DNA from: Bacteroides stercoris ATCC 43183
GTDB taxonomy: Bacteria > Bacteroidota > Bacteroidia > Bacteroidales > Bacteroidaceae
Length of the DNA stretch: 64,000 nucleotides
NCBI RefSeq assembly: GCF_025147325.1
Contig: NZ_CP102262.1
Coordinates: 1,922,001-1,986,000 of the forward strand
Reading direction: 5' to 3'
This document shows, one piece after another, positions 2 through 50,647 of the stretch. Made by a program: the position numbers and the translations under genes. The notes below the pieces were generated by a model. That model was given only the letters and a program-made list of their open reading frames with translations, had not been told where the DNA came from and ran no database searches. Numbering within the stretch: the first letter of the stretch is position 1; each line of letters opens with the position of its first letter.

Positions 2-298
2 ATACTTTCACAAGCTGTGAATTATACCAACGAAACAAGAGATGAAATTATAGCAAACGACTTGCGGCAATTTATTTCCTGTGCATTGCAACAGTTGACC
101 CCTCGCCAACGTGAAATATTCGAGATGAGTCGGGAGCAACAAATGTCTCATCGTGAAATAGCTGAAGTATTAGGTATTTCTGTTAATACGGTACAAGAAT
201 CCATTTCCATATCATTGAAAACACTGCGTGCTTATTTGGAAAAGAATTCGATAGTAGGTTCTGATTTGATTTTGATTCTTATTTGTTTGAATTTATAA
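2..298 (+). CDS. ECF RNA polymerase sigma factor, C-terminal part (cut by window start)
   Basis: The reading frame is open from base 2, so the gene begins outside the window; the GTG at 17 is unlikely to be the true start. What is visible is sigma-70 region 4: LTPRQREIFEMSREQQMSHR followed by EIAEVLGISVNTVQESI, a helix-turn-helix that would contact the -35 element. The gene is followed by a FecR-type anti-sigma gene and a SusC with an N-terminal STN domain. This is the standard Bacteroides trans-envelope signalling set, in which the outer-membrane receptor, anti-sigma and sigma factor couple substrate binding to transcription of the locus. Regions 2 and 3 are not seen. The family call is firm; the specific regulon is inferred from neighbours. 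Confidence 0.9.
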   Translation: MLSQAVNYTNETRDEIIANDLRQFISCALQQLTPRQREIFEMSREQQMSHREIAEVLGISVNTVQESISISLKTLRAYLEKNSIVGSDLILILICLNL

Positions 299-7711: not shown

Positions 7712-9058
7712 ATGTTGAAGAATATAATAAACTTTTACAGGGTTTCACAACCGAAACCCTGTAATGAAGAATCTTTGTCCGAACAGAAACAGCGTTTGAA
7801 ACGTTTTCAGTGGTCTACTTTTCTTGCTGCTACACTTGGTTATGGCATGTATTATGTTTGTCGTTTGAGCCTGAATGTCGTAAAGAAACCGATTGTAGAT
7901 GAGGGCGTTTTCTCGGAAACAGAATTGGGCATTATCGGTGCTGTGCTGTTCTTTACCTATGCTGTAGGTAAGTTTATGAACGGTTTTCTTGCTGACCGTA
8001 GCAATATCAATCGTTTTATGTCGACCGGTTTGCTGGTGACTGCTTTGGTGAACCTCTGTTTGGGATTTGTACATTCTTTTATTCTGTTTGCCGTTCTTTG
8101 GGGTATCAGCGGATGGTTTCAGTCTATGGGTGCTGCTTCTTGTGTGGTCGGCTTGTCCCGTTGGTTCACGGACAAGAAACGTGGTTCTTTTTACGGCTTT
8201 TGGAGTGCGAGTCACAACATCGGTGAGGCAATGACTTTCATTATCGTAGCCTCTATTGTAAGTGCACTGGGATGGCGTTACGGTTTTCTGGGTGCTGGCC
8301 TTGTCGGTCTGATTGGCGCTTTGGTAGTCTGGCGTTTTTTCCATGATACTCCTCAGAGCAAGGGACTTCCTGCTGTCAATGCTCCTGAAAAGAAAAAGGA
8401 GATGGATGCTTTAGAGACGGAGGAGTTCAATCGTGCTCAAAAAGCGGTATTGAGAAACCCGGCTATTTGGATACTTGCACTTAGTAGTGCTTTCATGTAC
8501 ATCAGCCGCTATGCGGTAAATAGCTGGGGTGTTTTCTATCTGCAGGCTGAGAAGGGCTATTCTACGTTGGATGCCAGTTTCATTATTTCTATAAGTTCGG
8601 TATTCGGCATTGTAGGAACAATGTTTTCTGGCGTTATCTCAGATAGGTTTTTTGGCGGTCGTCGCAATATTCCTGCCTTGATTTTCGGTTTGATGAATGT
8701 GTTTGCTCTATGTCTTTTCCTGCTTGTTCCGGGTGTACATTTTTGGATGGATGCTTTAGCGATGATGCTCTTTGGCTTGGGTATCGGTGTGCTAATTTGC
8801 TTTCTGGGTGGATTAATGGCTGTGGATATTGCTCCTCGCAATGCTTCGGGTGCAGCTTTAGGTGTGGTAGGTATTGCCAGTTATATCGGAGCAGGTTTGC
8901 AGGATGTGATGAGCGGTGTATTGATTGAGGGTAATAAACAGCTTGTTGATGGTGTAGAGGTTTACGATTTTACGTATATCAATTGGTTTTGGATAGGTGC
9001 GGCATTGTTGTCTGTTCTGTTGGCTTTGTTGGTATGGAATGCAAGAAGTAAAGAGTAG
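7712..9058 (+). CDS. Organophosphate:phosphate antiporter of the GlpT/UhpT type (MFS)
   Basis: A 448-residue, 12-helix major facilitator protein of the OPA family. The N-terminal motif LGYGMYYVCRLSLNVVKKPI matches the position of the substrate-binding Arg of GlpT helix 1, and MYISRYAVNSWGVFYL matches the second binding Arg in helix 7. FLADRSNINRFMSTGLL and GVISDRFFGGRRNIPALIFG are the two MFS A-motif loops. The family exchanges cytoplasmic phosphate for glycerol 3-phosphate, hexose phosphate or similar. It starts 22 bp after the phosphodiesterase, whose product would be a natural cargo, so glycerol 3-phosphate is the best guess. The symbol glpT is withheld because the substrate is not proven. 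Confidence 0.88.
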   Translation: MLKNIINFYRVSQPKPCNEESLSEQKQRLKRFQWSTFLAATLGYGMYYVCRLSLNVVKKPIVDEGVFSETELGIIGAVLFFTYAVGKFMNGFLADRSNINRFMSTGLLVTALVNLCLGFVHSFILFAVLWGISGWFQSMGAASCVVGLSRWFTDKKRGSFYGFWSASHNIGEAMTFIIVASIVSALGWRYGFLGAGLVGLIGALVVWRFFHDTPQSKGLPAVNAPEKKKEMDALETEEFNRAQKAVLRNPAIWILALSSAFMYISRYAVNSWGVFYLQAEKGYSTLDASFIISISSVFGIVGTMFSGVISDRFFGGRRNIPALIFGLMNVFALCLFLLVPGVHFWMDALAMMLFGLGIGVLICFLGGLMAVDIAPRNASGAALGVVGIASYIGAGLQDVMSGVLIEGNKQLVDGVEVYDFTYINWFWIGAALLSVLLALLVWNARSKE

Positions 9059-9189
9059 TATATCTTGTAATATTGGTAACAGTGTGAAATCGGAAAAACT
9101 TAACCGTTTATTCCGATTTTATACTGTTTTTTGTATTCTTACTAATATTCCATTTTAAAGATTTCGTATCTTTGTGAAAAGCATTGTGA

Positions 9190-9300
9190 ATGAAAAACAG
9201 ATGTAAAGGTATTATGGATTTTCATAGGATATATCTGTTAATAACAGTTGTACTATCTGGTTTAGTTGCCGCTCGTGCACAAGTCGCCTTAATAAGGTAA
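9190..9300 (+). CDS. 36-residue signal-peptide-like mini-ORF (possible gene remnant)
   Basis: The ORF MKNRCKGIMDFHRIYLLITV continues as VLSGLVAARAQVALIR and stops. It reads as a signal peptide with a cleavage-like ARAQ and almost no mature protein. A TATCTTTG box (9167-9174) lies 15 bp upstream. No extension of the frame resumes a domain downstream. It could be the 5' relic of a deleted secreted protein, a small secreted peptide, or chance. The rest of the 9059-9387 gap holds nothing else I can identify. Confidence 0.35.
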   Translation: MKNRCKGIMDFHRIYLLITVVLSGLVAARAQVALIR

Positions 9301-9387
9301 TGTATATGTATAACGATTTACAAGGCTATACAGAAAGATATGATGTGGCAGAAGAGTTGTGAAAGAAATATATAATAAAGATATCGT

Positions 9388-9879
9388 ATGAAGAAGATTA
9401 TCAACCCATGGAAAAACATGGAAGGTTATAATTGTTTTGGCTGTTCTCCCGATAATGAGGCAGGTGTAAGAATGGAATTCTATGAAGACGGCGATGAGAT
9501 AGTAAGTATCTGGAAGCCCCGTCCGGAGTATCAGGGGTGGTTGAATACGTTGCATGGGGGTATTCAGTCCGTATTGCTGGATGAAATTTGCGGTTGGGTG
9601 GTGTTCCGTAAGTTGCAGACCGGAGGAGTGACCTCTAAAATGGAGACTCGTTTTCGTAAGTCCATATCTACCAATGATACACACTTGGTGTTACGGGCAT
9701 CGTTGCGTGAGCAGAAACGTAATATTGCCGTTATAGAAGCAAGATTGTATAACAGCATGGGCGAACTCTGTACGGAGGCTACATGTACCTATTTTACTTT
9801 CCCGCAGGAAAAGGCGGAAAAGGAAATGTGTTTTCATCATTGTGATGTAGAACCGGATGAAATCTTACCTCTTGTTTGA
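9388..9879 (+). CDS. PaaI-type acyl-CoA thioesterase (hotdog fold)
   Basis: A 163-residue single-domain hotdog protein. The N-terminal NCFGCSPDNEAGVRMEFYED and the motif WLNTLHGGIQSVLLDEICGW (HGG..L.DE, the helix that carries the catalytic acid in the PaaI/4HBT2 group) identify the family. VTSKMETRFRKSISTND fits the central beta strand. The family cleaves acyl-CoA or similar thioesters; substrate specificity is not predictable here. The gene stands alone between the mini-ORF and the histidine operon leader and has its own ATG at 9388. No signal peptide is present, so it acts in the cytoplasm. Confidence 0.82.
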   Translation: MKKIINPWKNMEGYNCFGCSPDNEAGVRMEFYEDGDEIVSIWKPRPEYQGWLNTLHGGIQSVLLDEICGWVVFRKLQTGGVTSKMETRFRKSISTNDTHLVLRASLREQKRNIAVIEARLYNSMGELCTEATCTYFTFPQEKAEKEMCFHHCDVEPDEILPLV

Positions 9880-10019: not shown

Positions 10020-10104
10020 TCCGGTGGGCGTATGAGGATATGTGCATAACGAAGAACATATAATGAACGAGGCTTACCGAACATTGGTAAACCTCGTTTT
10101 TTTA
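9996..10104 (+). promoter_or_regulatory. Transcription attenuator of the hisGDCB operon
   Basis: Three mutually exclusive pairings can be drawn. Stem 1:2 is CACC (9996-9999, within the His codons) plus ATTATT (10000-10005) with AATAAT (10015-10020) plus GGTG (10023-10026). Stem 2:3, the antiterminator, is CGGTGGGC (10022-10029) with GCTTACCG (10072-10079), eight pairs with two G-U. Stem 3:4, the terminator, is AACGAGG and TTACC (10066-10078) with GGTAA and CCTCGTT (10086-10098), followed by a T7 run. Stalling on His codons masks strand 1 and frees strand 2 to block the terminator. An additional ATATGT/ACATAT stem lies between strands 2 and 3. Confidence 0.9.
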
Positions 10105-10132
10105 TTTGCAAACCATAAATATAAATAATATC

Positions 10133-10995: not shown

Positions 10996-12288
10996 ATGAA
11001 TTTAATTACTAATCCTGATAAATCTCAGTGGGCGGAATTGCTGAAACGTCCGGTGATGAATACGGAAAACCTTTTTGATACGGTACGGGCTATTATAGAC
11101 CGTGTAAAAACAGAAGGCGACCGTGCCGTATTGGAATACGAAGAAAAATTTGATAAAGTGGCTCTGACCGCATTGGCTGTGACGGAAGCGGAGCAGGCGG
11201 AAGCGGAAGCATCGGTAGGCGAGGAATTGAAAAAAGCCATTCGTCTGGCCAAACGGAATATAGAGACGTTTCATGCGGCACAACGCTTCGAAAGTAAACG
11301 GGTAGAGACTCAGCCGGGAGTTACTTGTTGGCAGAAGGCGGTTGCCATAGAGAAAGTCGGGTTGTATATCCCCGGTGGAACAGCACCGCTCTTTTCCACC
11401 GTGCTGATGCTGGCAGTTCCAGCCAGGATTGCAGGATGTAAGGAGATAGTGCTTTGCACGCCTCCGGGCAAAGATGGAAAAGTACACCCCGCCGTATTGT
11501 TTGCAGCTAAGGTGGCGGGAGTAAACCGTATTTTCAAAGCCGGTGGTGTGCAAGCTGTTGCGGCAATGGCTTATGGAACGGAAAGCGTGCCGAAAGTATA
11601 TAAGATATTTGGCCCGGGCAATCAATACGTAACGGCTGCCAAACAGTTGGTGAGCTTGCGTGATGTAGCTATTGATATGCCCGCCGGTCCTTCGGAAGTA
11701 GAGGTACTGGCGGATGAAACAGCCAATCCGTCTTTTGTAGCTGCCGACTTGCTGAGCCAGGCAGAGCATGGGGCCGACAGTCAGGCGATACTGATTACCA
11801 CTTCCCCGGCATTACAGCAGGCTGTGAAAGAGGAAGTGGAGCGTCAATTGGCTTTGTTGCCCCGTAAAGAGATTGCGGAAAAGTCTCTTGCCAATAGTAA
11901 ACTGATTGTTGTGCGCAATATGGACGAAGCTGTCGAACTGACCAATTCCTATGCACCGGAGCATCTCATTATCGAAACAGCGGATTATATGTCCGTTGCG
12001 GAGCGGGTGGTTAATGCCGGTTCGGTATTTTTGGGCTCTCTGACTCCGGAAAGTGCGGGAGATTATGCTTCGGGCACTAACCATACGCTGCCCACCAATG
12101 GCTATGCCAAAGCTTATAGCGGTGTCAGCCTTGATAGCTTTATACGTAAGATTACTTTCCAGGAAATTAAGCCGGAAGGGATACGCATTATTGGCCCTGC
12201 TATAGAGGAAATGGCAGCCAGCGAGCATTTGGATGCGCATAAGAATGCGGTAACTGTCAGACTTGATAAATTGGGAGTTGAAAATTAA
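10996..12288 (+). CDS. hisD: Histidinol dehydrogenase
   Basis: A 430-residue HisD, the zinc enzyme of the last two oxidations from histidinol to histidine with NAD+. Diagnostic stretches are EKVGLYIPGGTAPLFSTVLM, PGNQYVTAAKQLV and VAIDMPAGPSEVEVLADETA. The Zn- and substrate-binding part follows: LLSQAEHGADSQAILIT, YAPEHLIIE and SAGDYASGTNHTLPTNGYAK, which contain the conserved Gln, His, Glu-His and Asp residues, with a final His in SEHLDAHKNAV. It lies 11 bp after hisG in the same operon. Length is typical of bacterial HisD. Confidence 0.97.
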   Translation: MNLITNPDKSQWAELLKRPVMNTENLFDTVRAIIDRVKTEGDRAVLEYEEKFDKVALTALAVTEAEQAEAEASVGEELKKAIRLAKRNIETFHAAQRFESKRVETQPGVTCWQKAVAIEKVGLYIPGGTAPLFSTVLMLAVPARIAGCKEIVLCTPPGKDGKVHPAVLFAAKVAGVNRIFKAGGVQAVAAMAYGTESVPKVYKIFGPGNQYVTAAKQLVSLRDVAIDMPAGPSEVEVLADETANPSFVAADLLSQAEHGADSQAILITTSPALQQAVKEEVERQLALLPRKEIAEKSLANSKLIVVRNMDEAVELTNSYAPEHLIIETADYMSVAERVVNAGSVFLGSLTPESAGDYASGTNHTLPTNGYAKAYSGVSLDSFIRKITFQEIKPEGIRIIGPAIEEMAASEHLDAHKNAVTVRLDKLGVEN

Positions 12289-12342
12289 AAATCATACTTC
12301 ATCATTGATAATTCATAATCCGTAAATAAACTCTTTCTGTCC

Positions 12343-13383
12343 ATGAGAACCTTAGAAGAACTTACCCGACCGAATATCCGGCGTTTGAAACCTTACTCTT
12401 CGGCACGCGATGAATATAATGGCGCTGCTGCATCCGTTTTTCTCGATGCAAATGAAAATCCGTACAATATGCCGCACAACCGCTATCCGGACCCGATGCA
12501 GCGGGAGCTAAAGAAAGAACTGTCGAAGGTAAAGAAAATCTCCCCCGAACGCATATTTCTGGGAAATGGCAGTGATGAGGCAATAGACCTTGTATTTCGC
12601 GCTTTTTGCGAACCGCGTATAGACAATGTAGTAGCTATAGACCCTACGTACGGCATGTATCAGGTATGTGCCGAAATAAATGATGTGGAGTACCGCAAGG
12701 TACTGCTAGACGAGGATTTTCAATTTTCGGCAGATAAGTTGCTGGCGGTTGCGGATGAACATACGAAGCTGATTTTTCTTTGTTCTCCCAATAATCCCAC
12801 AGGAAATGATTTGCTTCGGAGTGAGATTGAGAAAATCATCCGCGAATTCGACGGGCTGGTGATATTGGATGAGGCTTATAACGATTTTTCAGAGGCGCCT
12901 TCTTTTTTGGATGAACTGGACAAATATCCTAATCTGATTGTACTGCAAACTTTCTCCAAAGCATGGGGCTGTGCTGCCATACGCTTGGGCATGGCTTTTG
13001 CTTCGCAGGAAATCATTTCGATTTTCAGCAAGATAAAGTATCCTTATAATGTAAACCAACTGACTCAGAAACAAGCGATGGAGATGTTGTACCGTTATTA
13101 TGAAATAGAGCGTTGGGTAAAAACATTGAAAGAAGAACGTGAGAATCTGGAAAACGAATTTGTGAAACTGCCTTGTACGGTGAAAATATTTCCTTCAGAT
13201 GCAAACTTTTTTCTGGTCCGTGTGACGGATGCGGTGAAGATTTATAATTATCTGGTGGCTGAAGGCATCATTGTGCGTAACCGTAATTCCGTATCGCTTT
13301 GCGGAAACTGTCTGCGGGTAACGGTAGGTACGAGAAACGAGAATGAAAGGCTGGTTGAGGCGTTGGAGAAATATAAAGTATAA
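12343..13383 (+). CDS. hisC: Histidinol-phosphate aminotransferase
   Basis: A 346-residue PLP enzyme of fold type I. Family features: LDANENPYN near the start, [44 protein letters not shown] (the Asp and Tyr that contact PLP), and [19 protein letters not shown] with the Schiff-base Lys in SKAW. It converts imidazole-acetol phosphate to histidinol phosphate with glutamate as donor. It is third in the his operon, separated from hisD by 54 bp of AT-rich, slightly repetitive sequence. No anomalies were seen. Confidence 0.96.
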
Positions 13384-13394
13384 AGTAGTAGGGT

Positions 13395-14543
13395 ATGAAG
13401 AAAGTACTTTTCATAGATCGTGACGGGACGTTGGTTATAGAGCCGCCCGTAGATTATCAATTGGATTCGTTGGAGAAACTGGAGTTTTATCCGAAAGTAA
13501 TGCGTAATCTTGGTTTTGTCCGTAGCAGGCTGGATTTTGAGTTCGTTATGGTTACCAATCAGGACGGGTTGGGTACGGCATCTTTTCCGGAAGAAACTTT
13601 TTGGCCGGCGCATAACCTGATGATGAAGACGTTGGAAGGTGAGGGAATTGCCTTCGATGATATTTGCATAGACCGTAGCATGCCCGAAGACAATGCGCCA
13701 ACCCGCAAGCCGCGTACCGGTATGCTGACGAAATATCTCGACAATCCTGAATACGATTTGGCAAATAGTTTTGTGATAGGCGACCGTGCTACGGATGTGG
13801 AGTTGGCTAAGAATCTGGGATGCCGTGCTATCCTCTTACAGGAAGATACGAATATGCTGAAACCGAAATCGGCCGGTGGTGAAGCTGCGTGTGAGGGCTT
13901 GGAGGACGTCTGTGTTTTGGCAACAAAGGATTGGGATAAGGTCGCCGAATTTCTTTTTGCCGGTGAGCGGAAAGCGGAAGTGCGCCGTACCACGAAAGAA
14001 ACGGATATTTACGTGGCTGTAAATTTAGACGGTAACGGTCATTGTGATATTCATACCGGACTTGGTTTCTTCGATCATATGCTGGAACAGATAGGCAAGC
14101 ATGGCGGCATGGATTTGACCATTCACGTAAAAGGTGATTTGGAAGTAGACGAGCATCATACAATAGAGGATACCGCCCTCTCTTTGGGTGAGTGCCTGTA
14201 TCAGGCATTGGGCAGTAAGCGCGGCATAGAACGTTACGGCTATGCACTGCCTATGGACGATTGTCTGTGTCAGGTATGTCTGGATTTTGGAGGACGTCCC
14301 TGGCTGGTATGGGATGCCGCGTTCAAGCGCGAGAAAATAGGAGAGATGCCTACGGAAATGTTCCTGCATTTCTTTAAGTCATTAAGCGATGCAGCCAAGA
14401 TGAACCTTAACATCAAGGCGGAAGGGCAGAATGAGCATCATAAGATAGAGGGAATCTTCAAAGCACTGGCAAGAGCCTTGAAGATGGCGGTGAAACGCGA
14501 TATTTATCACTATGAATTGCCAAGCTCAAAAGGGGTACTTTAG
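13395..14543 (+). CDS. hisB: Bifunctional histidinol-phosphatase / imidazoleglycerol-phosphate dehydratase
   Basis: A 382-residue fusion. Residues 1-170 form a HAD phosphatase (nucleophile motif [11 protein letters not shown] at 6-16, then [10 protein letters not shown], and [15 protein letters not shown]) that dephosphorylates histidinol phosphate. From about 200 on is the dehydratase, with manganese-binding [35 protein letters not shown] and the closing [18 protein letters not shown]. It starts 11 bp after hisC and ends the cluster; the other his genes are not in this window. A separate PHP-type histidinol-phosphatase gene lies at 52687, which would duplicate the N-terminal activity. A 13-bp GC-rich hairpin follows. 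Confidence 0.95.
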
Positions 14544-38626: not shown

Positions 38627-40423
38627 TTATTTCTCCTTTGCCAACGTAAAAACGAATTCCAGTCCGCCACCTTGATTATTCTTGGCGGAGATTGTTCCGC
38701 CATGAATGATGACGGCATTTTTTACGATGGCAAGCCCTAAGCCTGTACCGCCTAATTTTCGCGAACGTCCTTTGTCTACACGATAAAAGCGTTCGAACAA
38801 ACGATTCAGATGTTCTGGTGAAACGCCTACTCCGGTATCTGCAAAACTGAAATAATAGAAGTTCTCATCCTCACGGAAACAGTTGATGTTGATGTAGATA
38901 TTGGTTCCTGCATAAGCCATGGCGTTATCCATGAGGTTACGGAATATGGAATAGAGTAATGAATAGTTACCCTTTAATTGTATTTTGGGATGTAAACCGT
39001 TGACTACCGTAATATGCTTTTCTTCCAGTTCCAATGATACTTCGTTGACTATATTGGTGACAAGCATGCTGATGTCTACTTTCTCCATATCAATCATATT
39101 GGCTGCTTCATCCATACGTGTCAGTACGGAGATATCCCGTAATAGACGGCTCAGCCGGTTGCTTTGGGCATAACACCGTTCTAGGAAAGTCTGCATCTTT
39201 TCGCGAGGGATGCTTTCATTGCTGACAATTGTTTCCAGATACCCTTGAATACTGCTTACAGGGGTTTTCAGTTCATGTGCAATGTTCTGTGTCAGTTGGC
39301 GTTTCAAACGTACTTGTTCTTCTTCCTGTGTGATGTCATTAATGGATATTTCAAAACTCAGATCCTGGAAGATGATACATTCTACAATGAATATGCGCCC
39401 GTTTTTATTGATGTTGATGGAGAGACGCTTCTCTTCTTTATCCGAAGGTCTTCTTTGTGCCTTACTGATAAAATCGGTGATTTTTTGAAATTCGTAAATG
39501 GAAAATATCTCCTCGGTAGTTTGCAAGTTGGAATCGGAGATTAAATTGCCGTATTGTGTAAAGAGGTTATTGACTAAGATTTCTTTTTTGTCTTTAGTAA
39601 ATACACCCAATCCTTCGCGAGAAGTCTGTAGGTGTGTAATCAGTTTCTCACGTTCGATATATAACGCTTCTTTGGTTTCCCGCAAACGTTTATATATCTG
39701 TATAATGTGCTGGGATATTTCGCCAAGTTCATTATGCGGGAAAGCAGATTGTATATCGGTTTCCACCGGTTCGTTTTTATCGGCGCGTTTGGCAAATTCC
39801 CGCAGATGGTTGATTGCCGTACCCAGTTTGGATGTAAACTTATAGAAAACGAATATCAGCAATAAAGTAACAATAGCTGTAAACCAGAGGTAATGCGGAT
39901 CGGCAGCCAGACTATTTACCAGGTTTACATCATAGGGTAATGCCGAGCGAATGATATACTGGGGATAGAGAGTTGCCGAATAGAAATAGGGTATGCCTGT
40001 TGTTTCGGAGGTGCGCCTTAAATCATATCCTTTGCCGTTCTTTAATGCTTTTTGGACTTCCTGACGATTAATGTGATTGCTGAATGCTTCTTGGGAAGTT
40101 TCATTGTAACTGTCATAAAGGACGCGGCCTTGTAAATTTACGATAGTGACACGAAGGTCTCTGTATGAACCTTTGGCTATATACCGGTTTAAAGTAGATG
40201 TCCATAGACTGTCTGGAATACTTCGCAGTTCCTGTTGCAGGCGTTCATTATAGTCTTGGAGTTGCGTGTCGAGCAGTTCTACTTTATACTCTTTCTCCCG
40301 TTGATATTGATAAGCAATAAAACAGGCTGCAAAGACAAGAAATAATGAGATTACCGAAAGAAATAACTTCCGGCTGAATGACAGGAAGTGTCTGTCATTA
40401 TTCGGCTTCGAAGCAATAACCAT
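38627..40423 (-). CDS. Sensor histidine kinase (PhoR-like)
   Basis: A 598-residue membrane kinase. Helix 1 is KLFLSVISLFLVFAACFIAY, followed by a periplasmic domain of about 130 residues, then helix 2 YLWFTAIVTLLLIFVFYKF. A HAMP-like and PAS-like stretch follows, then HisKA with NIAHELKTPVSSIQGYLETI (phospho-acceptor His), and the catalytic part NLMDNAMAYAGTN, FADTGVGVSPEHL, FERFYRVDKGRSRKLGGTG, LGLAIVKNAVIIHGG. It overlaps the regulator gene upstream by 26 bp, so the two are co-translated and form a pair. The signal is unknown. It resembles the PhoR/RprX group of Bacteroides; I do not claim it is RprX. Confidence 0.93.
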   Translation of the reverse strand: MVIASKPNNDRHFLSFSRKLFLSVISLFLVFAACFIAYQYQREKEYKVELLDTQLQDYNERLQQELRSIPDSLWTSTLNRYIAKGSYRDLRVTIVNLQGRVLYDSYNETSQEAFSNHINRQEVQKALKNGKGYDLRRTSETTGIPYFYSATLYPQYIIRSALPYDVNLVNSLAADPHYLWFTAIVTLLLIFVFYKFTSKLGTAINHLREFAKRADKNEPVETDIQSAFPHNELGEISQHIIQIYKRLRETKEALYIEREKLITHLQTSREGLGVFTKDKKEILVNNLFTQYGNLISDSNLQTTEEIFSIYEFQKITDFISKAQRRPSDKEEKRLSININKNGRIFIVECIIFQDLSFEISINDITQEEEQVRLKRQLTQNIAHELKTPVSSIQGYLETIVSNESIPREKMQTFLERCYAQSNRLSRLLRDISVLTRMDEAANMIDMEKVDISMLVTNIVNEVSLELEEKHITVVNGLHPKIQLKGNYSLLYSIFRNLMDNAMAYAGTNIYININCFREDENFYYFSFADTGVGVSPEHLNRLFERFYRVDKGRSRKLGGTGLGLAIVKNAVIIHGGTISAKNNQGGGLEFVFTLAKEK

Positions 40424-41087
40424 ATCCTAAGCGAGTTACAATACATTTGCCATATATTCCTATCTTTTTGCGCAGGCGGGTGATGTTTACGTCTATAGTG
40501 CGGTCCAACACATATACTTCGTCACTCCAGATGCGGCTCAATATGTCTTCGCGGGAAAATACGCGTCCTTTGTTTTGCAATAGCAAGAGCAGTATTTCAA
40601 ACTCTTTTTTGGTGAGGGGAGCTTCCTCTCCGTCTATGCTTACTTTCTTTTTGATGATATCAAGCACTAATGATTTATAGGCAATTTGTTCAGGTGCGCG
40701 CTCCGTTTCAGTTTGCCGGGTACGGCGTAATACGGCTTTAACGCGTGCTGCTACTTCGCGTAAGGAGAAAGGCTTGGAGATATAGTCGTCTGCTCCTATA
40801 TTAAATCCGGTTACCGTATCATTTTCGGTGTCTTTGGCTGTGATAAAGATGATAGGAATCTTGGCCGTTTTCTTTTCTTTCTTTAGCATACTTGCCATTT
40901 TGAATCCGGAAATTTCCCCCATCATCACGTCCAGTAATAGCAGGTCGTAAGTACTGATGTCCATTTTCAAGGCATCTTCGGCAGAGTTTGCGGTATCTAC
41001 TTCGTAGCCTTCATTCTCAAGGTTAAACTTTAAGATTTCGCATAAATCTTCTTCGTCGTCTACTACTAAAATCCGATATTCGTTCAT
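40398..41087 (-). CDS. OmpR/PhoB-family response regulator
   Basis: A 229-residue regulator. The receiver at 1-120 has ILVVDDEEDLCEILKFNLEN, the phospho-acceptor Asp in YDLLLLDVMMGE, the conserved Thr/Ala in FITAKDTEND and Lys in GADDYISKPFSL. The winged-helix domain at 130-227 has APLTKKEFEILLLLLQNKGR, FSREDILSRIW and VYVLDRTIDVNITRLRKKIG. It is the first gene of a two-gene unit with the kinase, transcribed away from the transglutaminase-like gene across a 193-bp intergenic region that holds divergent promoters. DNA targets cannot be inferred. Confidence 0.94.
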   Translation of the reverse strand: MNEYRILVVDDEEDLCEILKFNLENEGYEVDTANSAEDALKMDISTYDLLLLDVMMGEISGFKMASMLKKEKKTAKIPIIFITAKDTENDTVTGFNIGADDYISKPFSLREVAARVKAVLRRTRQTETERAPEQIAYKSLVLDIIKKKVSIDGEEAPLTKKEFEILLLLLQNKGRVFSREDILSRIWSDEVYVLDRTIDVNITRLRKKIGIYGKCIVTRLGYGYCFEAE

Positions 41088-41280
41088 TGTATTTCTGAAT
41101 TAATGTAATGAGAGACGTATAGAGTCTCTTTATTACAAAGTTAAACTTTATTTCTTTTCTTCGACAAAATTGCGGCGTTTTTGTTACGATGGAATGAAAC
41201 AAGTATTACATTGCGATTACAAAATCTCTCTTGCAACTAATTAAGTATTATCTTTGTATTGTTTTAAAAAGGGTTTCTAT

Positions 41281-42483
41281 ATGAAAGAATTAATGGATAT
41301 AAAGAGGTGGGGACAATCTAAGTGGCGTATGCCGTTAATAGTGGCTGTATTGGCTGTTGTAATTATTGGTTCGATTTGGTTGAACGTTGCTCCTTTCCGT
41401 TCCGGTTTTGAGATAACGGATGAATTGGGTGGGAATATTTTTCCTTCCAGCATTTTGTCTGTTGCAACGACAGATGCCCAGGTGATTGTGCCGGCTGATT
41501 CGATGTTTGTGGGAAACCCAAAATCTTGTATCGCTGTGAAAGTCCGGTCGGCAAAGGCTTATAGCCGGGTGAGGATAGAAGTTGCGGAAACCCCTTTCTT
41601 TTCCCGTTCCGTTTCGGAGTTTGTATTGGCAAGGCCACGTACCGAGTATACAATCTATCCCGATATTATCTGGAACTATGAAGCCTTGAAGAATAATAAT
41701 CAGGCGGAGCCGATTAGCGTTGCCGTTACGGTAGAGATGAATAGGAAAGAGTTGGGGCAGCGGGTACGTACTTTTTCGGTGCGCAGTATCAATGAGTGTT
41801 TATTGGGGTATGTTACGGGAGGTACGAGATTTCATGATACCGGAATATTCTTTGCTGCTTATGTCAATGAAGAAAATCCTATGATAGACCATTTGCTACG
41901 GGAGGCATTGAATACTCGTATTGTGAATCGTTTCCTCGGTTATCAGGGTAGTCCTGAGGCTGTCGATAATCAGGTTTATGCCTTGTGGAATGTTTTGCAG
42001 AAACGTAATTTCCGGTATAGTTCGGTTTCTAATACAAGCCTGTCCAGCAATGTGGTTTTCTCTCAACGTGTTCGTACATTCGATGATGCCTTGGAGTCGT
42101 CGCAAATTAATTGTGTGGATGGGAGTGTTCTGTTTGCTTCTTTGCTGCGTGCCATAAATATCGAGCCGATACTGGTACGTACACCCGGACATATGTTTGT
42201 TGGTTATTATACTGATGCAAATCATAAAGATATGAAATTTCTTGAGACCACCATGATTGGGGATGTGGATTTGGACGATTTCTTTCCTGATGAACGGCTG
42301 GATTCTACTATGGTGGGAAAAACGCAGAATCAGATGTCCCGTATAACCTTTGATAAGTCTAAAGAGTATGCAAGTCGGAAATATAAAGAGAATGAAAAGG
42401 GCATTCATTCCGGCAGATTGAATTATATGTTTTTGGAAATATCCAAGGATGTAAGAAGGCGGATACAACCTATAGGAAAATAG
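41281..42483 (+). CDS. Membrane-anchored transglutaminase-like protein of unknown function
   Basis: A 400-residue protein; the start ATG 41281 (MKELMDIKRWGQSKWRMPLI) is preferred to an earlier in-frame codon inside the promoter. One N-terminal helix (PLIVAVLAVVIIGSIWL) anchors it with the rest outside the cytoplasm. INCVDGSVLFASLLRAINIE followed by PILVRTPGHMFVGYYTDANH has the Cys and His of a transglutaminase/NlpC-like catalytic core; a third Asp may lie in FLETTMIGDVDLDDF. Catalysis is not assured. A TATCTTTG box lies at 41249-41256. The gene ends just before the susC mirror repeat. I do not recognise a named function. Confidence 0.6.
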   Translation: MKELMDIKRWGQSKWRMPLIVAVLAVVIIGSIWLNVAPFRSGFEITDELGGNIFPSSILSVATTDAQVIVPADSMFVGNPKSCIAVKVRSAKAYSRVRIEVAETPFFSRSVSEFVLARPRTEYTIYPDIIWNYEALKNNNQAEPISVAVTVEMNRKELGQRVRTFSVRSINECLLGYVTGGTRFHDTGIFFAAYVNEENPMIDHLLREALNTRIVNRFLGYQGSPEAVDNQVYALWNVLQKRNFRYSSVSNTSLSSNVVFSQRVRTFDDALESSQINCVDGSVLFASLLRAINIEPILVRTPGHMFVGYYTDANHKDMKFLETTMIGDVDLDDFFPDERLDSTMVGKTQNQMSRITFDKSKEYASRKYKENEKGIHSGRLNYMFLEISKDVRRRIQPIGK

Positions 42484-42506: not shown

Positions 42507-42617
42507 TTAAATAGTACTTTGGGAACTTAGCGCATTATCAGCAGCAACAACCGAATATGGCACAGACATCCCAAGCAATGCAAGCAACACTAATGATAAG
42601 CAATAATTTCTTTTCAT
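42507..42617 (-). pseudogene. Truncated mirror copy of a susC 5' end
   Basis: Reading leftward from ATG 42617-42615: the first 35 codons equal the start of the susC at 44384 base for base (MKRNYCLSLVLLALLGMSVP through NALSSQST), then one Ile codon and TAA. The signal peptide is complete but no mature domain follows. It has the same promoter and leader as the intact gene because the whole 227-bp region is duplicated in inverted orientation. It is either the stub of a lost divergent susC or the far end of an inversion switch. Confidence 0.85.
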
Positions 42618-42739
42618 AAGCTCTTTTTTATTTGGATTTATTTGCAAATTTATAAATTAATTCAGCAAATCAAAGAGAGATGTATTTAAAATATATTAAA
42701 TAAATATTAATATATTTGCTTTTATAATTTTAAAATATT
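42513..42739 (+). repeat. Left arm of a perfect 227-bp inverted repeat
   Basis: Compared base by base, 42513-42739 is the exact reverse complement of 44262-44488, with no mismatch or gap. The outer edge begins AGTACTTTGGG, the inner edge ends TTTTAAAATATT. It contains a leftward promoter, leader and 35 codons. Between its inner edge and the IS lies a 50-bp spacer (42740-42789) with a 13-bp dyad CTTATC-T-GATAAG (42746-42758) and a TATATTTG (42780-42787). Confidence 0.98.
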
Positions 42740-42860
42740 ACGCTACTTATCTGATAAGAAATAATAATGTTTATTGTTTTATATTTGCCAATATTTTGGC
42801 TCAGCGGAAATATCTGGTTGGTAAGTTTTAAAATTAGCTATCTTTGCTTACCTTTGTTTT

Positions 42861-43211
42861 ATGAAACCCGCACAACTCCTTCGTGCCATCCTTCCGGATG
42901 TGCTTATAGACAACTTTGATATTGTCAATTTCGACAAGAGTGCTGACCGTTTTGATATTTATCTTGATGAAAAAAAAGTTCAACTAAAAGAAGATAAGAT
43001 CAATCCGGATATCATATCCTATGGTTTTGGTGAGTATCGTACAATCCAAGACTATCCTATTCGTGGTCGCGCCACTTATCTCCATGTTCGTAAACGTAAA
43101 TGGCTTGACAAATCTTCCAATGAAATCTTCAGTTATGACTGGGATTTATCCGAATTTGACGGTACACGGCTCAATTCTGAGTTCGTCTCTTTTTTAAAAG
43201 AAGGAGATTGA
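42861..43211 (+). CDS. ISAon1-family transposase, N-terminal region protein
   Basis: A 116-residue ORF (MKPAQLLRAILPDVLIDNFD at the start, SFLKEGD at the end) in the first part of the element. Such a short protein precedes the main transposase ORF in ISAon1-type elements and carries the N-terminal, probably DNA-binding, part. Two TAnnTTTG boxes lie just upstream (42839-42846 and 42849-42856). The next ORF is in the +1 frame and starts 11 bp after this stop; the join has TTTTTTAAAAG, so either recoding or coupled reinitiation is possible. Confidence 0.85.
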   Translation: MKPAQLLRAILPDVLIDNFDIVNFDKSADRFDIYLDEKKVQLKEDKINPDIISYGFGEYRTIQDYPIRGRATYLHVRKRKWLDKSSNEIFSYDWDLSEFDGTRLNSEFVSFLKEGD

Positions 43212-43221
43212 ATCTACTCCT

Positions 43222-44226
43222 GTGAGCATCAGTGTGCTTGCGGAACGTTATGGCGTAAAAGGGCAGACTCTTCGTAAACAATACAAGGAGAAAATCAGTG
43301 ATTACCGGAACTGGGATCAGCTCGAACATGCGCATGACTATCTCCTTTATCCTGAAAATATTGGAGAAAAGCTTTCTTTGGATGAAACTTGCCTGAGCAA
43401 TGGAGATGTTTATACGATTCTGACCAATAAAGCAGCTAAAGGTCGTAAGGGTGCTTTAGTTGCAATAGTTCGTGGAGTGGCCACAGATGCGGTAAGCGGA
43501 ATCTTGCGCAGGCTTCCGCACCGGAAACGGCTGTCTGTCAAGACTGTCACTACAGATTTATCTTCAGCCATGATGCTGACAGTCAGAAAGGTGTTTCCTG
43601 CCGCAAAGCTGATCAATGACCGTTTTCATGTACAGCAGCTCATGTCTGAAGCTGTTGACCAGTTAAGAATACGCTATCGGTGGAAAGTACTTGATGCGGA
43701 AAATCAGGCTATCAGGGAGCATCGCCAAAAGAAGAAAGAAACAAAGAGTAAGGCGGAAAGGGAAAGAATAGGGAAATGGGAACCTGAAAGAATGGAGAAC
43801 GGAGAAACCCTGTCACAGATAGTAAGCAGAAGCAAGCACATTATACTGAAACACTGGAGCAAATGGAATGAACAGCAAAAGACCAGGGCTGCCATTCTCT
43901 TTGATAAATTCCCCAAGCTTCTGGAAGGATACAGCCTTAGCATGAAACTGACAGACATCTTCAACAAGAAGTCAGGTCTCGATGAAGCAAGGCTAAATCT
44001 CGCAAGATGGTACAATGAAGTGGAAAAGTTTGACTATATGGAGTTCAACAAGGTACTTGATACGTTTTCAAACCATAGTACGACCATCATAAATTATTTT
44101 GAAGAACGATTGACAAATGCTTCAGCGGAGTCGTTCAATGCTAAAATCAAAGCTTTTCGAAGCCAGTTAAGAGGGGTGGCTGATCTGAAATTCTTCATGT
44201 TCAGACTGGCTAGGCTATACGCTTAA
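43222..44226 (+). CDS. ISAon1-family transposase, catalytic part
   Basis: A 334-residue protein with a GTG start at 43222 preceded by an AAGGAG-like ribosome site inside the end of the previous ORF. A DDE-type core is proposed from GEKLSLDETCLSNGD, VKTVTTDLSSAMMLTVRKVF and TNASAESFNAKIKAFRSQLR, which would supply Asp, Asp and Glu. MSISVLAERYGVKGQTLRKQ at the start resembles a helix-turn-helix. It moves the element flanked by the TIRs. No stop codons or frameshifts break the catalytic part, so it may be active. Confidence 0.88.
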   Translation: MSISVLAERYGVKGQTLRKQYKEKISDYRNWDQLEHAHDYLLYPENIGEKLSLDETCLSNGDVYTILTNKAAKGRKGALVAIVRGVATDAVSGILRRLPHRKRLSVKTVTTDLSSAMMLTVRKVFPAAKLINDRFHVQQLMSEAVDQLRIRYRWKVLDAENQAIREHRQKKKETKSKAERERIGKWEPERMENGETLSQIVSRSKHIILKHWSKWNEQQKTRAAILFDKFPKLLEGYSLSMKLTDIFNKKSGLDEARLNLARWYNEVEKFDYMEFNKVLDTFSNHSTTIINYFEERLTNASAESFNAKIKAFRSQLRGVADLKFFMFRLARLYA

Positions 44227-44261
44227 AAGAAAGCTTGCCAACCGGGGAAATCCGCTGACCC

Positions 44262-44488
44262 AATATTTTAAAATTATAAAAGCAAATATATTAATATTTA
44301 TTTAATATATTTTAAATACATCTCTCTTTGATTTGCTGAATTAATTTATAAATTTGCAAATAAATCCAAATAAAAAAGAGCTTATGAAAAGAAATTATTG
44401 CTTATCATTAGTGTTGCTTGCATTGCTTGGGATGTCTGTGCCATATTCGGTTGTTGCTGCTGATAATGCGCTAAGTTCCCAAAGTACT
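44262..44488 (+). repeat. Right arm of the perfect 227-bp inverted repeat
   Basis: Exact reverse complement of 42513-42739. It contains the promoter, leader and first 35 codons of the intact susC. It abuts the IS directly, since the IS target duplication is its first 8 bases. Identity ends within the codons after QST, right after AGTACT. Confidence 0.98.
44327..44356 (+). promoter_or_regulatory. Bacteroides-type promoter of the second susC
   Basis: TTTG (44327-44330), 18 bases, TAAATTTG (44349-44356), the canonical spacing; the ATG is at 44384. The identical, leftward-facing copy sits in the left arm. The promoter lies inside the arm, so the IS insertion does not cut it from susC. Confidence 0.75.
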
Positions 44489-47400
44489 CAGCAAGCCAAA
44501 ACAATCACAGGTAAAGTAGTGGATGTTGCAGGCGAACCGATTATTGGAGCCAGTGTATTGGTGAAAGGTTCCAGTACAGGTTCTGTTACTGACATCGATG
44601 GAAAATTCTCGGTAGAAGCTCCAGTGGGTAGCACATTGGTAGTCTCATTTGTTGGATATGCTACGGAAGAAGTGAAGGTAGGAACGGCAAGCGACTATAC
44701 GGTTACCCTGAAAGATGATACCCAGTCATTGAGTGAAGTTGTTGTAACGGCTATGGGCATTAAGAAAGAGAAAAAGGCGTTAGGTTATTCTGTTTCGGAT
44801 ATTAATTCCAAAGAGTTAATGAAGAACAAGCAAACGAATGTGGTAAACTCTTTGGCTGGTAAAATCCCCGGTGTGAATATTACGCAGGCGGGTGGTGCTG
44901 CGGGTGCCGGTTCCAATATTGTAATTCGTGGCGGTAACTCTGCCAGCGAATCTCGTGATAACCAGCCCTTGTTTGTTGTAGACGGTATTATCTATGATAA
45001 CTCTACAGTAAATACCGGTAATTCCGGTACGGATGGCATGACGAAAACTGCAACTACTTTCAGCAACCGCGTAATGGATATTAACCCTGAAGACATTGAG
45101 AGCATGTCCGTGTTGAAAGGTGCTGCGGCTGCTGCGCTGTATGGCTCCCGTGCTGCTAATGGCGTTATTATCATTACGACCAAGAAAGGTGAAGAGGGTG
45201 CTGTAAGGGTGAATGTAAGCAGTAAATATACCTATTCATGGGCTAATAAATTACCGGAAGCTCAAAAACAGTATGGCCGTGGAGAATATAACACTTCTGG
45301 TGCTTTTATTGATAAGACGATGGATTCCTGGGGAGATCGGATTGATGGTATGGCTTATGATAATATAGATGATTTCTTTCAAGGAAGTAGTGTTTGGGAT
45401 AATAGTGTAAGTGTGTCCGGCGGTAGTAAGAACGGTTCTTTCTATTTATCCGGTTCCAATTATCATCAGTCCGGCATTATCCCTACAACTGGTTATGACA
45501 AGACGACTTTCCGCTTTAATGGTGAACAGAAATATGGCATCCTGACAGTAGGAGCCAATGTTTCTTATTCGCAGGCAAGTACTGATAAGACACTGACCAG
45601 TGCAGGTTTGTACGGACAGGGCGGTAACGGTGCAATGACCGCTGTTTACGGATGGCCTGTCGACGATCAGATGAGTCGCTATCTGAATGATGATGGTAGT
45701 AAATACCGCATATTGGAGGGTTTGCAGGATTTGGAGGATGATGTTGAAAATCCGTATTGGATTCTGAATAAAAATACTTTGACGGACGAAACATCCCGTT
45801 TTACGGGTGCAGTCAACGCAAGCCTCAAACTGACAGACTGGTGGGATGTTTCCGCACGTGCGGGTATTGATAAGTACACTACCAGTTCCAATACGCTTCG
45901 GCGTCCGGGTGGTGCGGTCAAGCAGATATATCAGAACGGTTATATGTCCAAAGGTGATGTGAATTACCAATACATTACTACGAATGTGATGTCTAACTTC
46001 CATAAGACTTTCGGTGATTTTGATTTGAATCTTCTGGTAGGTACTACTACAGAAGCTACGAAGACAACGAATAACACCCGTTGGGGATATAATTTTGTAA
46101 CGGAAGGGCTTTACAGTTTCAACAATATTATTAAAGCCAACCAGTATTTCAAAGAGAGTACGGTACGCAAACGCATGGTAGGCCTTTACGGTGAATTCCG
46201 TGCTTCGTACAAGAATCTTGTTTATCTGACAGTGACCGGACGTAACGACTGGTCTTCTACATTGCCGGTGAATAACCGTTCTTATTTTTATCCTTCCGTA
46301 AGCGGTTCGTTTGTGTTTACCGAACTGCTGCCGAAGAACAACGTACTTTCATTCGGTAAGATCCGCGGTTCATGGGCACGGGTAGGTAAAGATGCCGATG
46401 CCTATTCTTTGGGATACTATATGTGGCCGGTAGCTACGCTGAACGGTGGCAAATATGGTATGGGCAACAGTTGGACAGGCGGTAGTGTCGGTTTGAAACC
46501 TGAAATACAGGATTCTTATGAATTGGGTTTGGAAATGCGTTTCTTCAACGGACGTTTGGGCTTTGACTATACTTACTATCAAAGCAAGACGAAAGACCAG
46601 ATTTGTGCACCGCGTTTGGCACAGTCTACGGGATACATTTTCCTTACGCTGAATGGCGGTTCGGTAGAAAATAAGGGTATGGAGCTCTCGATTACAGGTA
46701 AACCTATTGTAACGAAAGACTTCCAATGGGAAACGACATTGAATCTTTCCGGTAACCGTGGACGATTGGGAGATTTTATCGACGGTGTGGATATTTTCTA
46801 TGTGACGGATGCGCAGGTCGGTGCAGCCAAAGCCGGTTCAATACCCAATGGCGGTTATTTTTTGGGATTGACGGGTAATAAGTATGAAACGGCTCAAGGG
46901 CCCGACGGCAAGATGTACAATGTTATCGACCCGTCTACAGGTTTGTATAAGGATACGCAAGTTGAAACCAATATTGTGGGTAACCGTGAACCGAAGCTGA
47001 TAGGTGGTTTTAATAATAGTTTCAGCTATAAGAATTTCAACCTTTCTTTCTTGTTCGATATCCGTCTGGGAGGTGACATCTATAATGGGACCGAATACTA
47101 TCTCGTGACGAAAGGATTGAGCACAAAGACAATAAACAGAGAATCCGTATCATTTACGGGTGTTGTCAATACGGGTACTGCTGCAAAACCGTCTTATGAA
47201 ACCAAAACAATTACCTATAATGCCAATGAAACTTATCAGGTTGGTAACTCTACCCGTTCCGGCAAGTATATGATTCAGGAGTATTATAAGAATTATGCCA
47301 AGAACGCCTATAACTTTATAACTGACACCAATTGGCTGCGTTTGCGTTCTATTTCCTTGTCCTACGATTTCAAGGATTTGTTGAAGAAACAAAATATAAT

Positions 47401-47581
47401 CAAGGGGCTGACTGCTACAATTACGGGAACTAATCTGTTTGTTTGGACAAACTACAAGGGTATGGATCCTGAAACATGCGTTTCAGGTTCCGGTACAGGT
47501 GGTTCCGGTTCTGCAGGTATCGACTATTGCGGTGTTCCGGCCACAGCCGGCATGTCGTTTGGCATTAATCTTACATTCTAA
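44384..47581 (+). CDS. SusC/RagA-family TonB-dependent outer-membrane transporter
   Basis: A 1065-residue SusC; the start ATG 44384 gives a good signal peptide (MKRNYCLSLVLLALLGMSVP). The mature part begins with CarboxypepD_reg-like TITGKVVDVAGEPIIGASVL and continues with plug motifs EVVVTAMGIKKEKKALGYSV, QPLFVVDGIIYDNS, SMSVLKGAAAAALYGSRAAN, and a barrel ending in MSFGINLTF. Unlike the first SusC in the window it has no STN domain, so it is not wired to a FecR/ECF pair. Its first 35 codons and promoter are part of the 227-bp inverted repeat. susD follows after 24 bp; no glycoside hydrolase is nearby, so cargo is unknown. Confidence 0.95.
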   Translation: MKRNYCLSLVLLALLGMSVPYSVVAADNALSSQSTQQAKTITGKVVDVAGEPIIGASVLVKGSSTGSVTDIDGKFSVEAPVGSTLVVSFVGYATEEVKVGTASDYTVTLKDDTQSLSEVVVTAMGIKKEKKALGYSVSDINSKELMKNKQTNVVNSLAGKIPGVNITQAGGAAGAGSNIVIRGGNSASESRDNQPLFVVDGIIYDNSTVNTGNSGTDGMTKTATTFSNRVMDINPEDIESMSVLKGAAAAALYGSRAANGVIIITTKKGEEGAVRVNVSSKYTYSWANKLPEAQKQYGRGEYNTSGAFIDKTMDSWGDRIDGMAYDNIDDFFQGSSVWDNSVSVSGGSKNGSFYLSGSNYHQSGIIPTTGYDKTTFRFNGEQKYGILTVGANVSYSQASTDKTLTSAGLYGQGGNGAMTAVYGWPVDDQMSRYLNDDGSKYRILEGLQDLEDDVENPYWILNKNTLTDETSRFTGAVNASLKLTDWWDVSARAGIDKYTTSSNTLRRPGGAVKQIYQNGYMSKGDVNYQYITTNVMSNFHKTFGDFDLNLLVGTTTEATKTTNNTRWGYNFVTEGLYSFNNIIKANQYFKESTVRKRMVGLYGEFRASYKNLVYLTVTGRNDWSSTLPVNNRSYFYPSVSGSFVFTELLPKNNVLSFGKIRGSWARVGKDADAYSLGYYMWPVATLNGGKYGMGNSWTGGSVGLKPEIQDSYELGLEMRFFNGRLGFDYTYYQSKTKDQICAPRLAQSTGYIFLTLNGGSVENKGMELSITGKPIVTKDFQWETTLNLSGNRGRLGDFIDGVDIFYVTDAQVGAAKAGSIPNGGYFLGLTGNKYETAQGPDGKMYNVIDPSTGLYKDTQVETNIVGNREPKLIGGFNNSFSYKNFNLSFLFDIRLGGDIYNGTEYYLVTKGLSTKTINRESVSFTGVVNTGTAAKPSYETKTITYNANETYQVGNSTRSGKYMIQEYYKNYAKNAYNFITDTNWLRLRSISLSYDFKDLLKKQNIIKGLTATITGTNLFVWTNYKGMDPETCVSGSGTGGSGSAGIDYCGVPATAGMSFGINLTF

Positions 47582-49837: not shown

Positions 49838-50647
49838 ATGAAACAAGGTAAGAAATACATTTCTCCGGGAGCATGGTTCTCTATGGTTTATCCGGCAGAC
49901 TGGAATGAATTTGAAGACGGGGAAGGCTCTTTCCTGTTTTATAATCCTAACGAGTGGACCGGTAATTTCCGTATATCGGCTTATAAGGGAGATACTGCAT
50001 ACGGCAGGGAATCTGTTAAGCAGGAACTCAAAGAGAATACTTCGGCCACACTTGTGAAAATAGGTCGTCTGGATTGTGCGTACAGTAAGGAGATGTTTGA
50101 GGAAGAAGGAACATACTACACTTCCCATCTCTGGATAGCTGGGATAGACGATGTTGCTTTTGAATGCTCGTTTACGGTGCGTAAGGGAGAGCCGGTGGCA
50201 GAGGCCGAAAGCATCATAGCTTCATTGGAAGTCCGTCGGGCCGGCCAAAAATATCCGGCAGAGATAATTCCGGTGCGCCTATCGGAAATTTACCGGATAA
50301 ACGAAGCATACGAGTGGGTATGTACCACTGTAAAAGAGCAGTTGAAGAAAGACTTCCAGGGACAGGAAGAAGATATAGCCAATATGCAGCAGGTCATAGA
50401 CAGCGGCAGCATAGGCGCCAAGAAAAAAGAGGTATGGTTGTCGCTGGGTATTACGCTTTGTGTGATTTTGGCTAATGAAGTAGACGGTTTGGAATGGCGT
50501 ACGCTCATCGACGGCAATCGTGAAGCCCCTGTTCTGACGAGTGTTGCGGGCAATACCGTGATAGACCCGATGAAATTGGTATGGAGCAAAGTCAAAGCCG
50601 GAGAGCCCTGCAATCTTGCAGAGGTTTACCGGAATTTACTTTCATGA
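49838..50647 (+). CDS. DUF3805/DUF3806-like protein of unknown function
   Basis: A 269-residue soluble protein without a signal peptide. The first 140 residues (GAWFSMVYPADWNEFEDGEG, then FLFYNPNEWTGNFRISAYKG) look like a PsbP/DUF1795-like or DUF3805 alpha-beta domain. The last 120 (AYEWVCTTVKEQLKKDF, then LSLGITLCVILANEVDGLEW) resemble DUF3806. I recall these two domains occurring together in Bacteroides proteins, but function is not established. It has its own promoter and stands between susD and an ABC-F gene. Confidence 0.65.
   Translation: MKQGKKYISPGAWFSMVYPADWNEFEDGEGSFLFYNPNEWTGNFRISAYKGDTAYGRESVKQELKENTSATLVKIGRLDCAYSKEMFEEEGTYYTSHLWIAGIDDVAFECSFTVRKGEPVAEAESIIASLEVRRAGQKYPAEIIPVRLSEIYRINEAYEWVCTTVKEQLKKDFQGQEEDIANMQQVIDSGSIGAKKKEVWLSLGITLCVILANEVDGLEWRTLIDGNREAPVLTSVAGNTVIDPMKLVWSKVKAGEPCNLAEVYRNLLS

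What the first reader, a model, noticed from the sequence alone, without database searches (positions are those of the whole stretch)
42513..44488. Perfect 227-bp inverted repeat of a susC promoter, leader and signal peptide
Both arms are identical over 227 bases, coding and non-coding alike. One drives the intact susC, the other a 36-codon stub. Perfect identity means either a very recent inverted duplication or continuous homogenisation by recombination. Without the IS the arms were only 50 bp apart, and the spacer holds a dyad CTTATC-T-GATAAG. This is what one would expect of a SusC inversion system in which a shared promoter/signal-peptide cassette is swapped between alternative receptors, with one partner lost. 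Recombinase-mediated SusC inversions are known in Bacteroides, but no recombinase gene lies in the window.
Basis: partly seen in the sequence, partly recalled or inferred. Interest (0 to 1): 0.85.

Follow-up and report, generated by a model that had tools for sequence, protein, structure and literature searches.

The report
Invertible receptor switch, apparently locked ON
In this gut Bacteroides an on/off DNA switch in front of a nutrient-receptor gene has gained a second, mirror-image copy of its start signal, so that flipping the switch should no longer turn the receptor off.

Summary
In detail: two 227-bp arms, 100% identical, inverted, 50 bp apart before an ISAon1/ISL3-family IS entered; they are the only two copies in the 4.0-Mb genome.

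Comparison across Bacteroides explains them. A conserved locus beside phoBR carries a promoter/leader/signal-peptide cassette ending in a 15-bp site, AGTTC-N5-GWACT, just after the susC signal peptide. Four relatives have two divergent susCD operons and one cassette between them. B. clarus and B. gallinarum kept one susC plus both inverted sites (ON). The window's arms end, to the base, at these sites. A tyrosine recombinase lies inside this locus in one relative; its 69%-identical relative in the window's genome lies 1.72 Mb away, inside another SusC shufflon.

Peculiar to the window: the left site also carries a full, inverted cassette. Inversion would restore the same 227 bp before susC, so the switch should be locked ON. 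That step and the recombinase assignment are inferred. New variant of the known SusC inversion systems. A chimeric assembly of ON and OFF molecules is not excluded.

The parts
42513..42527 (-). left site, AGTTCCCAAAGTACT read on the minus strand
   Evidence: motif scan; same place beside P0001 as the sites of B. clarus and B. gallinarum
44474..44488 (+). right site, AGTTCCCAAAGTACT, codons SSQST just after the susC signal peptide
42513..42739 (-). left arm: inverted copy of the promoter/leader/signal-peptide cassette
   Evidence: judged the copy because spacer plus right arm continue as in B. clarus and B. gallinarum
44262..44488 (+). right arm: original cassette, joined to susC
42507..42617 (-). 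36-codon stub reading frame (signal peptide plus a few codons), stop just past the site
44327..44356 (+). promoter-like TTTG-N18-TAAATTTG in the right arm
   Evidence: regex; the Bacteroides box consensus is recalled, not tested
42645..42674 (-). the same promoter-like element in the left arm
   Evidence: by identity of the arms
42740..42789 (.). pre-IS spacer; from about 42746 on homologous to DNA upstream of the cassette in sister species
42798..44261 (+). ISAon1/ISL3-family insertion sequence, target duplication AATATTTT
44384..47581 (+). susC, 1065 aa
47606..49576 (+). susD-like gene
41281..42483 (+). P0001, conserved neighbour of the left site
40398..41087 (-). phoB-type response regulator
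   Evidence: NF053854, 375 bits over a cut-off of 270
38627..40423 (-). phoR-type histidine kinase
   Evidence: NF053855, 992 bits over a cut-off of 500
49838..50647 (+). DUF3805/DUF3806 gene, far border of the conserved locus

Best explanation
The locus descends from a SusC phase-variation system. A tyrosine recombinase flips a cassette (promoter, leader, ATG, signal peptide) between two inverted AGTTC-N5-GWACT sites, so that the cassette joins either the susC body or the other side. Ancestrally the other side held a second susCD operon. In this lineage that operon was lost while its site stayed beside P0001, leaving an ON/OFF switch as still seen in B. clarus and B. gallinarum (ON) and, in mirror arrangement, in two further species (OFF). 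In the window's lineage the filler beside the left site was then replaced by an inverted copy of the cassette, for example by template switching or recombination between ON and OFF sister molecules. Each site now carries an identical full cassette, so an inversion rebuilds the same promoter and signal peptide before susC: the receptor is locked ON, and the mirror copy yields a 36-codon stub and probably a transcript towards the 3' end of P0001. Shown by sequence: sites, alternative configurations among species, remnants of a partner, which arm is the copy. Inferred: that the recombinase acts here, that both cassettes are transcribed, that flipping is neutral, and how the copy arose.
For: Arms end exactly at the site pair of B. 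clarus. Four genomes with two receptors and one cassette, facing either side. One-receptor forms ON (L003, L005) and OFF (L208, L209); the L209 body is open for 1036 codons with no start codon in the 22 open codons before it. Remnants of a second susC beside P0001 in L207 and L212. Spacer plus right arm align with native upstream DNA of the sister species. Arms 0 of 227 different, against 17 mismatches and 3 gap positions to B. clarus. A recombinase inside the locus in L007, with a 69% relative in this genome located in another SusC shufflon.
Against: No inversion was observed in the window's species; no reads or second strain could be examined. The recombinase relative lies 1.72 Mb away and the sites of its own locus (AGTTCTGCGAAAACT) differ from the window's. 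The strict site motif is not enriched in the genome: 16 hits against 26 for the reversed control. The link between site and recombinase has exceptions: G084 keeps an intact gene with a decayed site; G110, G075 and G133 have a perfect or one-mismatch site without a relative found. In G037 (L223) the same motif lies upstream of the signal peptide, a different plan.
Confidence: 0.7

Rival explanations
1. Assembly chimera: the population holds ON and OFF forms of an ordinary one-cassette switch, and the assembly joined an OFF left half to an ON right half.
For: The window equals an OFF left part followed by an ON right part; L207, a relative, has a run of N at this very site; the inner arm end coincides with the IS edge.
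Against: G000 is one contig, and the junction to the spacer is clean; no read data were available either way.
Confidence: 0.13
2. Two-receptor, two-cassette ancestor (as in G040/L211 and G089/L060) whose second body was lost and whose cassettes were homogenised by recombination between the arms.
For: Such loci exist; within a genome their two cassettes are 176 of 230 and 159 of 234 identical.
Against: B. clarus and B. gallinarum have a bare left site with no second cassette, so the second cassette would have been lost twice.
Confidence: 0.12
3. Chance inverted duplication by template switching that has nothing to do with site-specific inversion.
For: Short-spaced perfect inverted repeats can arise that way (general knowledge).
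Against: The outer ends lie at the very bases where sister species have a 16-bp inverted pair and where other species join cassette and body.
Confidence: 0.05

Closest known systems
Tsr0667-controlled SusC/SusD shufflons of Bacteroides fragilis (Nakayama-Imaohji 2009, not held; known here from passages of PMC4747536 and PMC11852207)
   Same: SusC/SusD genes, inversion by a tyrosine recombinase acting at several places in trans, alternative receptors
   Different: The window has one receptor, a doubled cassette and no choice of receptor; whether its sites and recombinase are those of Tsr0667 could not be tested
Shufflon EE of B. fragilis NCTC 9343 (passages of PMC5729914 and PMC3090145)
   Same: Inverted repeats overlapping the start of ragA/susC genes
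   Different: There large segments with genes are said to turn behind an invertible promoter; here the small promoter/signal-peptide cassette is the turning part
Invertible promoters of Bacteroides capsule and vesicle loci (Mpi, Tsr19; passages of PMC4747536)
   Same: ON/OFF switching by turning a promoter between inverted repeats
   Different: Here one site lies inside the coding sequence, so start codon and signal peptide move too, and in the window both orientations carry the promoter

Membership tests
SusC/SusD inversion systems (Tsr0667 type) | susC/susD receptor genes at the locus | tested here: met
   TIGR04056 682 bits over 368, SusD-like Pfam matches
SusC/SusD inversion systems (Tsr0667 type) | inverted recombination sites at the 5' part of susC | tested here: met
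   inverted pair 42513-42527 and 44474-44488, conserved in relatives; function as sites inferred
SusC/SusD inversion systems (Tsr0667 type) | alternative receptor bodies at the locus | tested here: not met
   one susC in the window; partner present in four relatives
SusC/SusD inversion systems (Tsr0667 type) | inversion by a tyrosine recombinase | not testable with these tools
   candidate gene at G000 239599-240801; action not shown, Tsr0667 sequence not available
ON/OFF invertible promoter | the two orientations give different expression | tested here: not met
   by sequence only: the 227 bp before susC are the same either way; expression not measured

The most novel reading that the evidence does not exclude
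A phase-variable switch retired not by losing its sites or its recombinase but by becoming a palindrome: the invertible cassette was copied onto both sites, so flipping may continue but can no longer silence the receptor. This would be a natural route to phase-locking, at a phoBR-linked SusC switch found in many species of the genus.
Probability: 0.5. Interest if true: 0.65.

Novelty: new variant of a known kind. Interest (0 to 1): 0.57.

Why it matters
It places a switchable SusC expression cassette, its site and a candidate recombinase at a conserved phoBR-linked locus in many Bacteroides species, in two-receptor, ON, OFF and decayed forms, so the life history of such a switch can be read by comparison. 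The window adds a form in which symmetry itself should cancel phase variation, which PCR and deletion of one arm can test.

Tried and rejected
Other genes sharing the leader in this genome: none beyond the two arms. Other pairs of the strict site motif: 16 rows at 14 places, fewer than 26 for the reversed control; the only inverted pair within 5 kb is the window's. The motif with up to 3 mismatches to the window site gave 45 hits against 70 for the control, the two exact ones in the window. A recombinase near the locus: none in the window. Other tyrosine recombinases: of 92 places in four genomes (37, 55) 60 were compared with the L007 enzyme; besides itself and four relatives at 67-69%, longer alignments reached at most 36%, with higher values only in matches of 74 aa or less, one a 75-aa fragment of G000 at 62% over 52 aa. 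At that fragment (L284) no SusC match and no good site. Filler beside the left site in B. clarus and B. gallinarum: best scores in the window 56-65, below 82 for shuffled filler. L207 was first read as OFF in my notes; its run of N shows an ON locus with an assembly break. B. gallinarum's left site was first noted as interrupted; it is present at 9578-9592. A text search for the half-sites gave nothing relevant; my memory of an AGTTC-N5-GAACT class in B. fragilis is recall only. The listings of the searches showed no title or abstract on a doubled, mirror-image SusC cassette; most subscription papers are not covered.

Full report
OBSERVATION. The arms 42513-42739 and 44262-44488 are 227 nt, fully complementary, with 1522 nt between, and are the only two matches of the arm in the 4,007,931-bp single-contig genome G000. 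Between them lies an ISAon1/ISL3-family element at 42798-44261 with target duplication AATATTTT. The genome has 12 near-complete copies, 10 of full length and 2 lacking the first 35 bases searched; all 10 full-length copies show an 8-bp duplication, 9 different sequences, mostly AT-rich. Without the IS the spacer is 50 bp. The left arm encodes a 36-codon stub, the right arm the start of a 1065-aa SusC.

WHAT THE RELATIVES SHOW. A search with this SusC in genome contigs gave 71 loci; the arm matches 38 of 149 genomes of the genus, own included. In many of the Bacteroides loci the surroundings are conserved: phoR- and phoB-type genes, P0001, the SusC region, a DUF3805 gene (names, window genes only). 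In four genomes (G056/L027, G047/L210, G032/L224, G144/L007) two divergent susCD operons stand there with one promoter/leader/signal-peptide cassette between them, joined to one body while the other lacks it. It faces the P0001 side in L027, L224 and L007 and the DUF3805 side in L210. The junction is AGTTC-N5-GWACT, read S-S-Q-S-T or similar. Reservations: L027 has broken frames, and the silent body of L007 stops 14 codons after the site. Two genomes (G040/L211, G089/L060) have two receptors each with a cassette of its own, 176 of 230 and 159 of 234 identical. G124 also had two weak arm matches, on different contigs; these were not examined. In G037 (L223) the motif lies upstream of the signal peptide, another plan.

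ONE-RECEPTOR FORMS. B. clarus (L003) and B. gallinarum (L005) have only the DUF3805-side susC, but an inverted second site remains just downstream of P0001: 9630-9645 with 10090-10105 in L003, and 9578-9592 with 10091-10105 (one mismatch between them) in L005. Their cassette is ON. In L209 the body is open for 1036 codons with no start codon in the 22 open codons before it; in L208 it stops after 404 codons. G118 (L207) has a short susC piece with a site next to P0001, and G079 (L212) a piece of a susC C-terminal region, consistent with loss of a second operon. L207 has a run of N at its ON site.

WHAT IS SPECIAL IN THE WINDOW. The outer ends of the arms coincide to the base with the ends of the B. 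clarus site pair. The spacer from about 42746 on, together with the right arm, aligns with DNA upstream of the cassette in B. clarus and B. gallinarum. So the right arm is the original and the left arm an inverted copy that took the place of some 190-245 bp of filler. The arm differs from B. clarus by 17 mismatches and 3 gap positions, while the two arms do not differ; a copy as old as the species split would be expected to show about 17 differences, so copying or the last homogenisation is recent (inference).

RECOMBINASE. The window has none. In L007 a 390-aa tyrosine-recombinase gene (8630-9802, minus) lies between the two susC genes, inside the stretch bounded by the sites. Of 92 recombinase places in four genomes 60 were compared with it: four relatives at 67-69% (one each in G000, B. 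clarus G031 and G057, a second in G144), longer alignments to the rest at 36% or less. The G000 relative, 401 aa with domains PF17293, PF13102 and PF00589, is at 239599-240801, 1.72 Mb away. It lies in what looks like another SusC shufflon: a complete susC with signal peptide (L280 5942-9148, minus), on the other side a SusC body without signal peptide (11360-14320; it has an ATG just before the site), a further SusC match from 17573, and AGTTCTGCGAAAACT at 11363 and 17591 with its inverse at 8933; 8883-8947 and 11363-11427 form a 65-bp inverted repeat with one mismatch. G144 has the like at L283, 65 of 65.

Of 30 genomes searched (8 with weak arm matches were left out), 22 have a relative at E<=1e-60: 16 uninterrupted, 6 with stops. 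The site was classed in 29 (G013 dropped, no SusC match in its piece). An intact relative is present in 11 of 15 with a perfect site, 4 of 6 with one mismatch, 1 of 8 with two or more. Fisher p=0.0097 for 15 of 21 against 1 of 8; 0.047 for 14 of 19 against 1 of 5 in genomes at least 90% complete. Kinship is not corrected for; single stops in drafts may be errors; the relative may serve other loci. Exceptions: G084 intact gene with decayed site; G110, G075, G133 site without gene.

MECHANISM. The promoter-like TTTG-N18-TAAATTTG (44327-44356; consensus recalled) lies inside the arm, so both arms carry it. Whatever turns the stretch between the sites, susC keeps the same 227 bp up to the site. 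Compared with the B. clarus form, which should switch ON and OFF, the window form should be always ON, with a constant stub and a promoter directed at the 3' end of P0001. The copy may have arisen when an OFF and an ON molecule were joined in the spacer. All this is inference from sequence.

UNEXPLAINED. The inner end of the right arm coincides with the IS edge. Either the IS entered flush with the stem end, or it was there first and the copying stopped at its end. I cannot decide.

LITERATURE (passages only, by term search within each paper). [quoted passage not shown] fragilis. PMC11852207 says the like. PMC5729914: shufflon EE with inverted repeats overlapping the start of ragA/susC. PMC12548429: nutrient-receptor shufflons in B. 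thetaiotaomicron. PMC10939037: invertible regions in or near SusC/SusD systems differ between disease and health. PMC12632263, PMC3090145, PMC3547664 and PMC11892184 were seen in the same way. Nakayama-Imaohji 2009 is not held. SusC inversion is thus known; the mirror-image, locked form did not show in the listings.

VERDICT. The arms are its doubled cassette, and the likely consequence is the end of switching.

Noticed in passing
window 44262-44269 and 42790-42797: The inner end of the right arm coincides to the base with the IS target duplication; the order of IS insertion and cassette copying is open.
   Followed up: partly
L280 (G000:C1:230000-249900): A second SusC locus of the same genome with a recombinase between a complete susC and two further SusC bodies and three shared sites, apparently a working shufflon.
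   Followed up: partly
window 38627-42483: The switch sits beside phoR/phoB-type genes in many species, which raises the question whether this receptor serves phosphate or phosphorylated nutrients.
   Followed up: no
window 41281-42483: P0001 weakly matches the N-terminal part of the NCBIfam model antiphage_ProA (83 bits, cut-off 1500); no Pfam match.
   Followed up: no
cassette alignment: The first codons of the signal peptide are strongly conserved at DNA level across species, including synonymous positions, suggesting a constraint beyond the protein.
   Followed up: no
L208 6230-9333: The susC body in the OFF position has a stop after 404 codons, perhaps decay while silent, perhaps a sequencing error.
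   Followed up: no
G000:C1:2390648-2390662 and 2391513-2391941: A single site-like motif lies within 1 kb of a serine-recombinase gene; probably chance.
   Followed up: no
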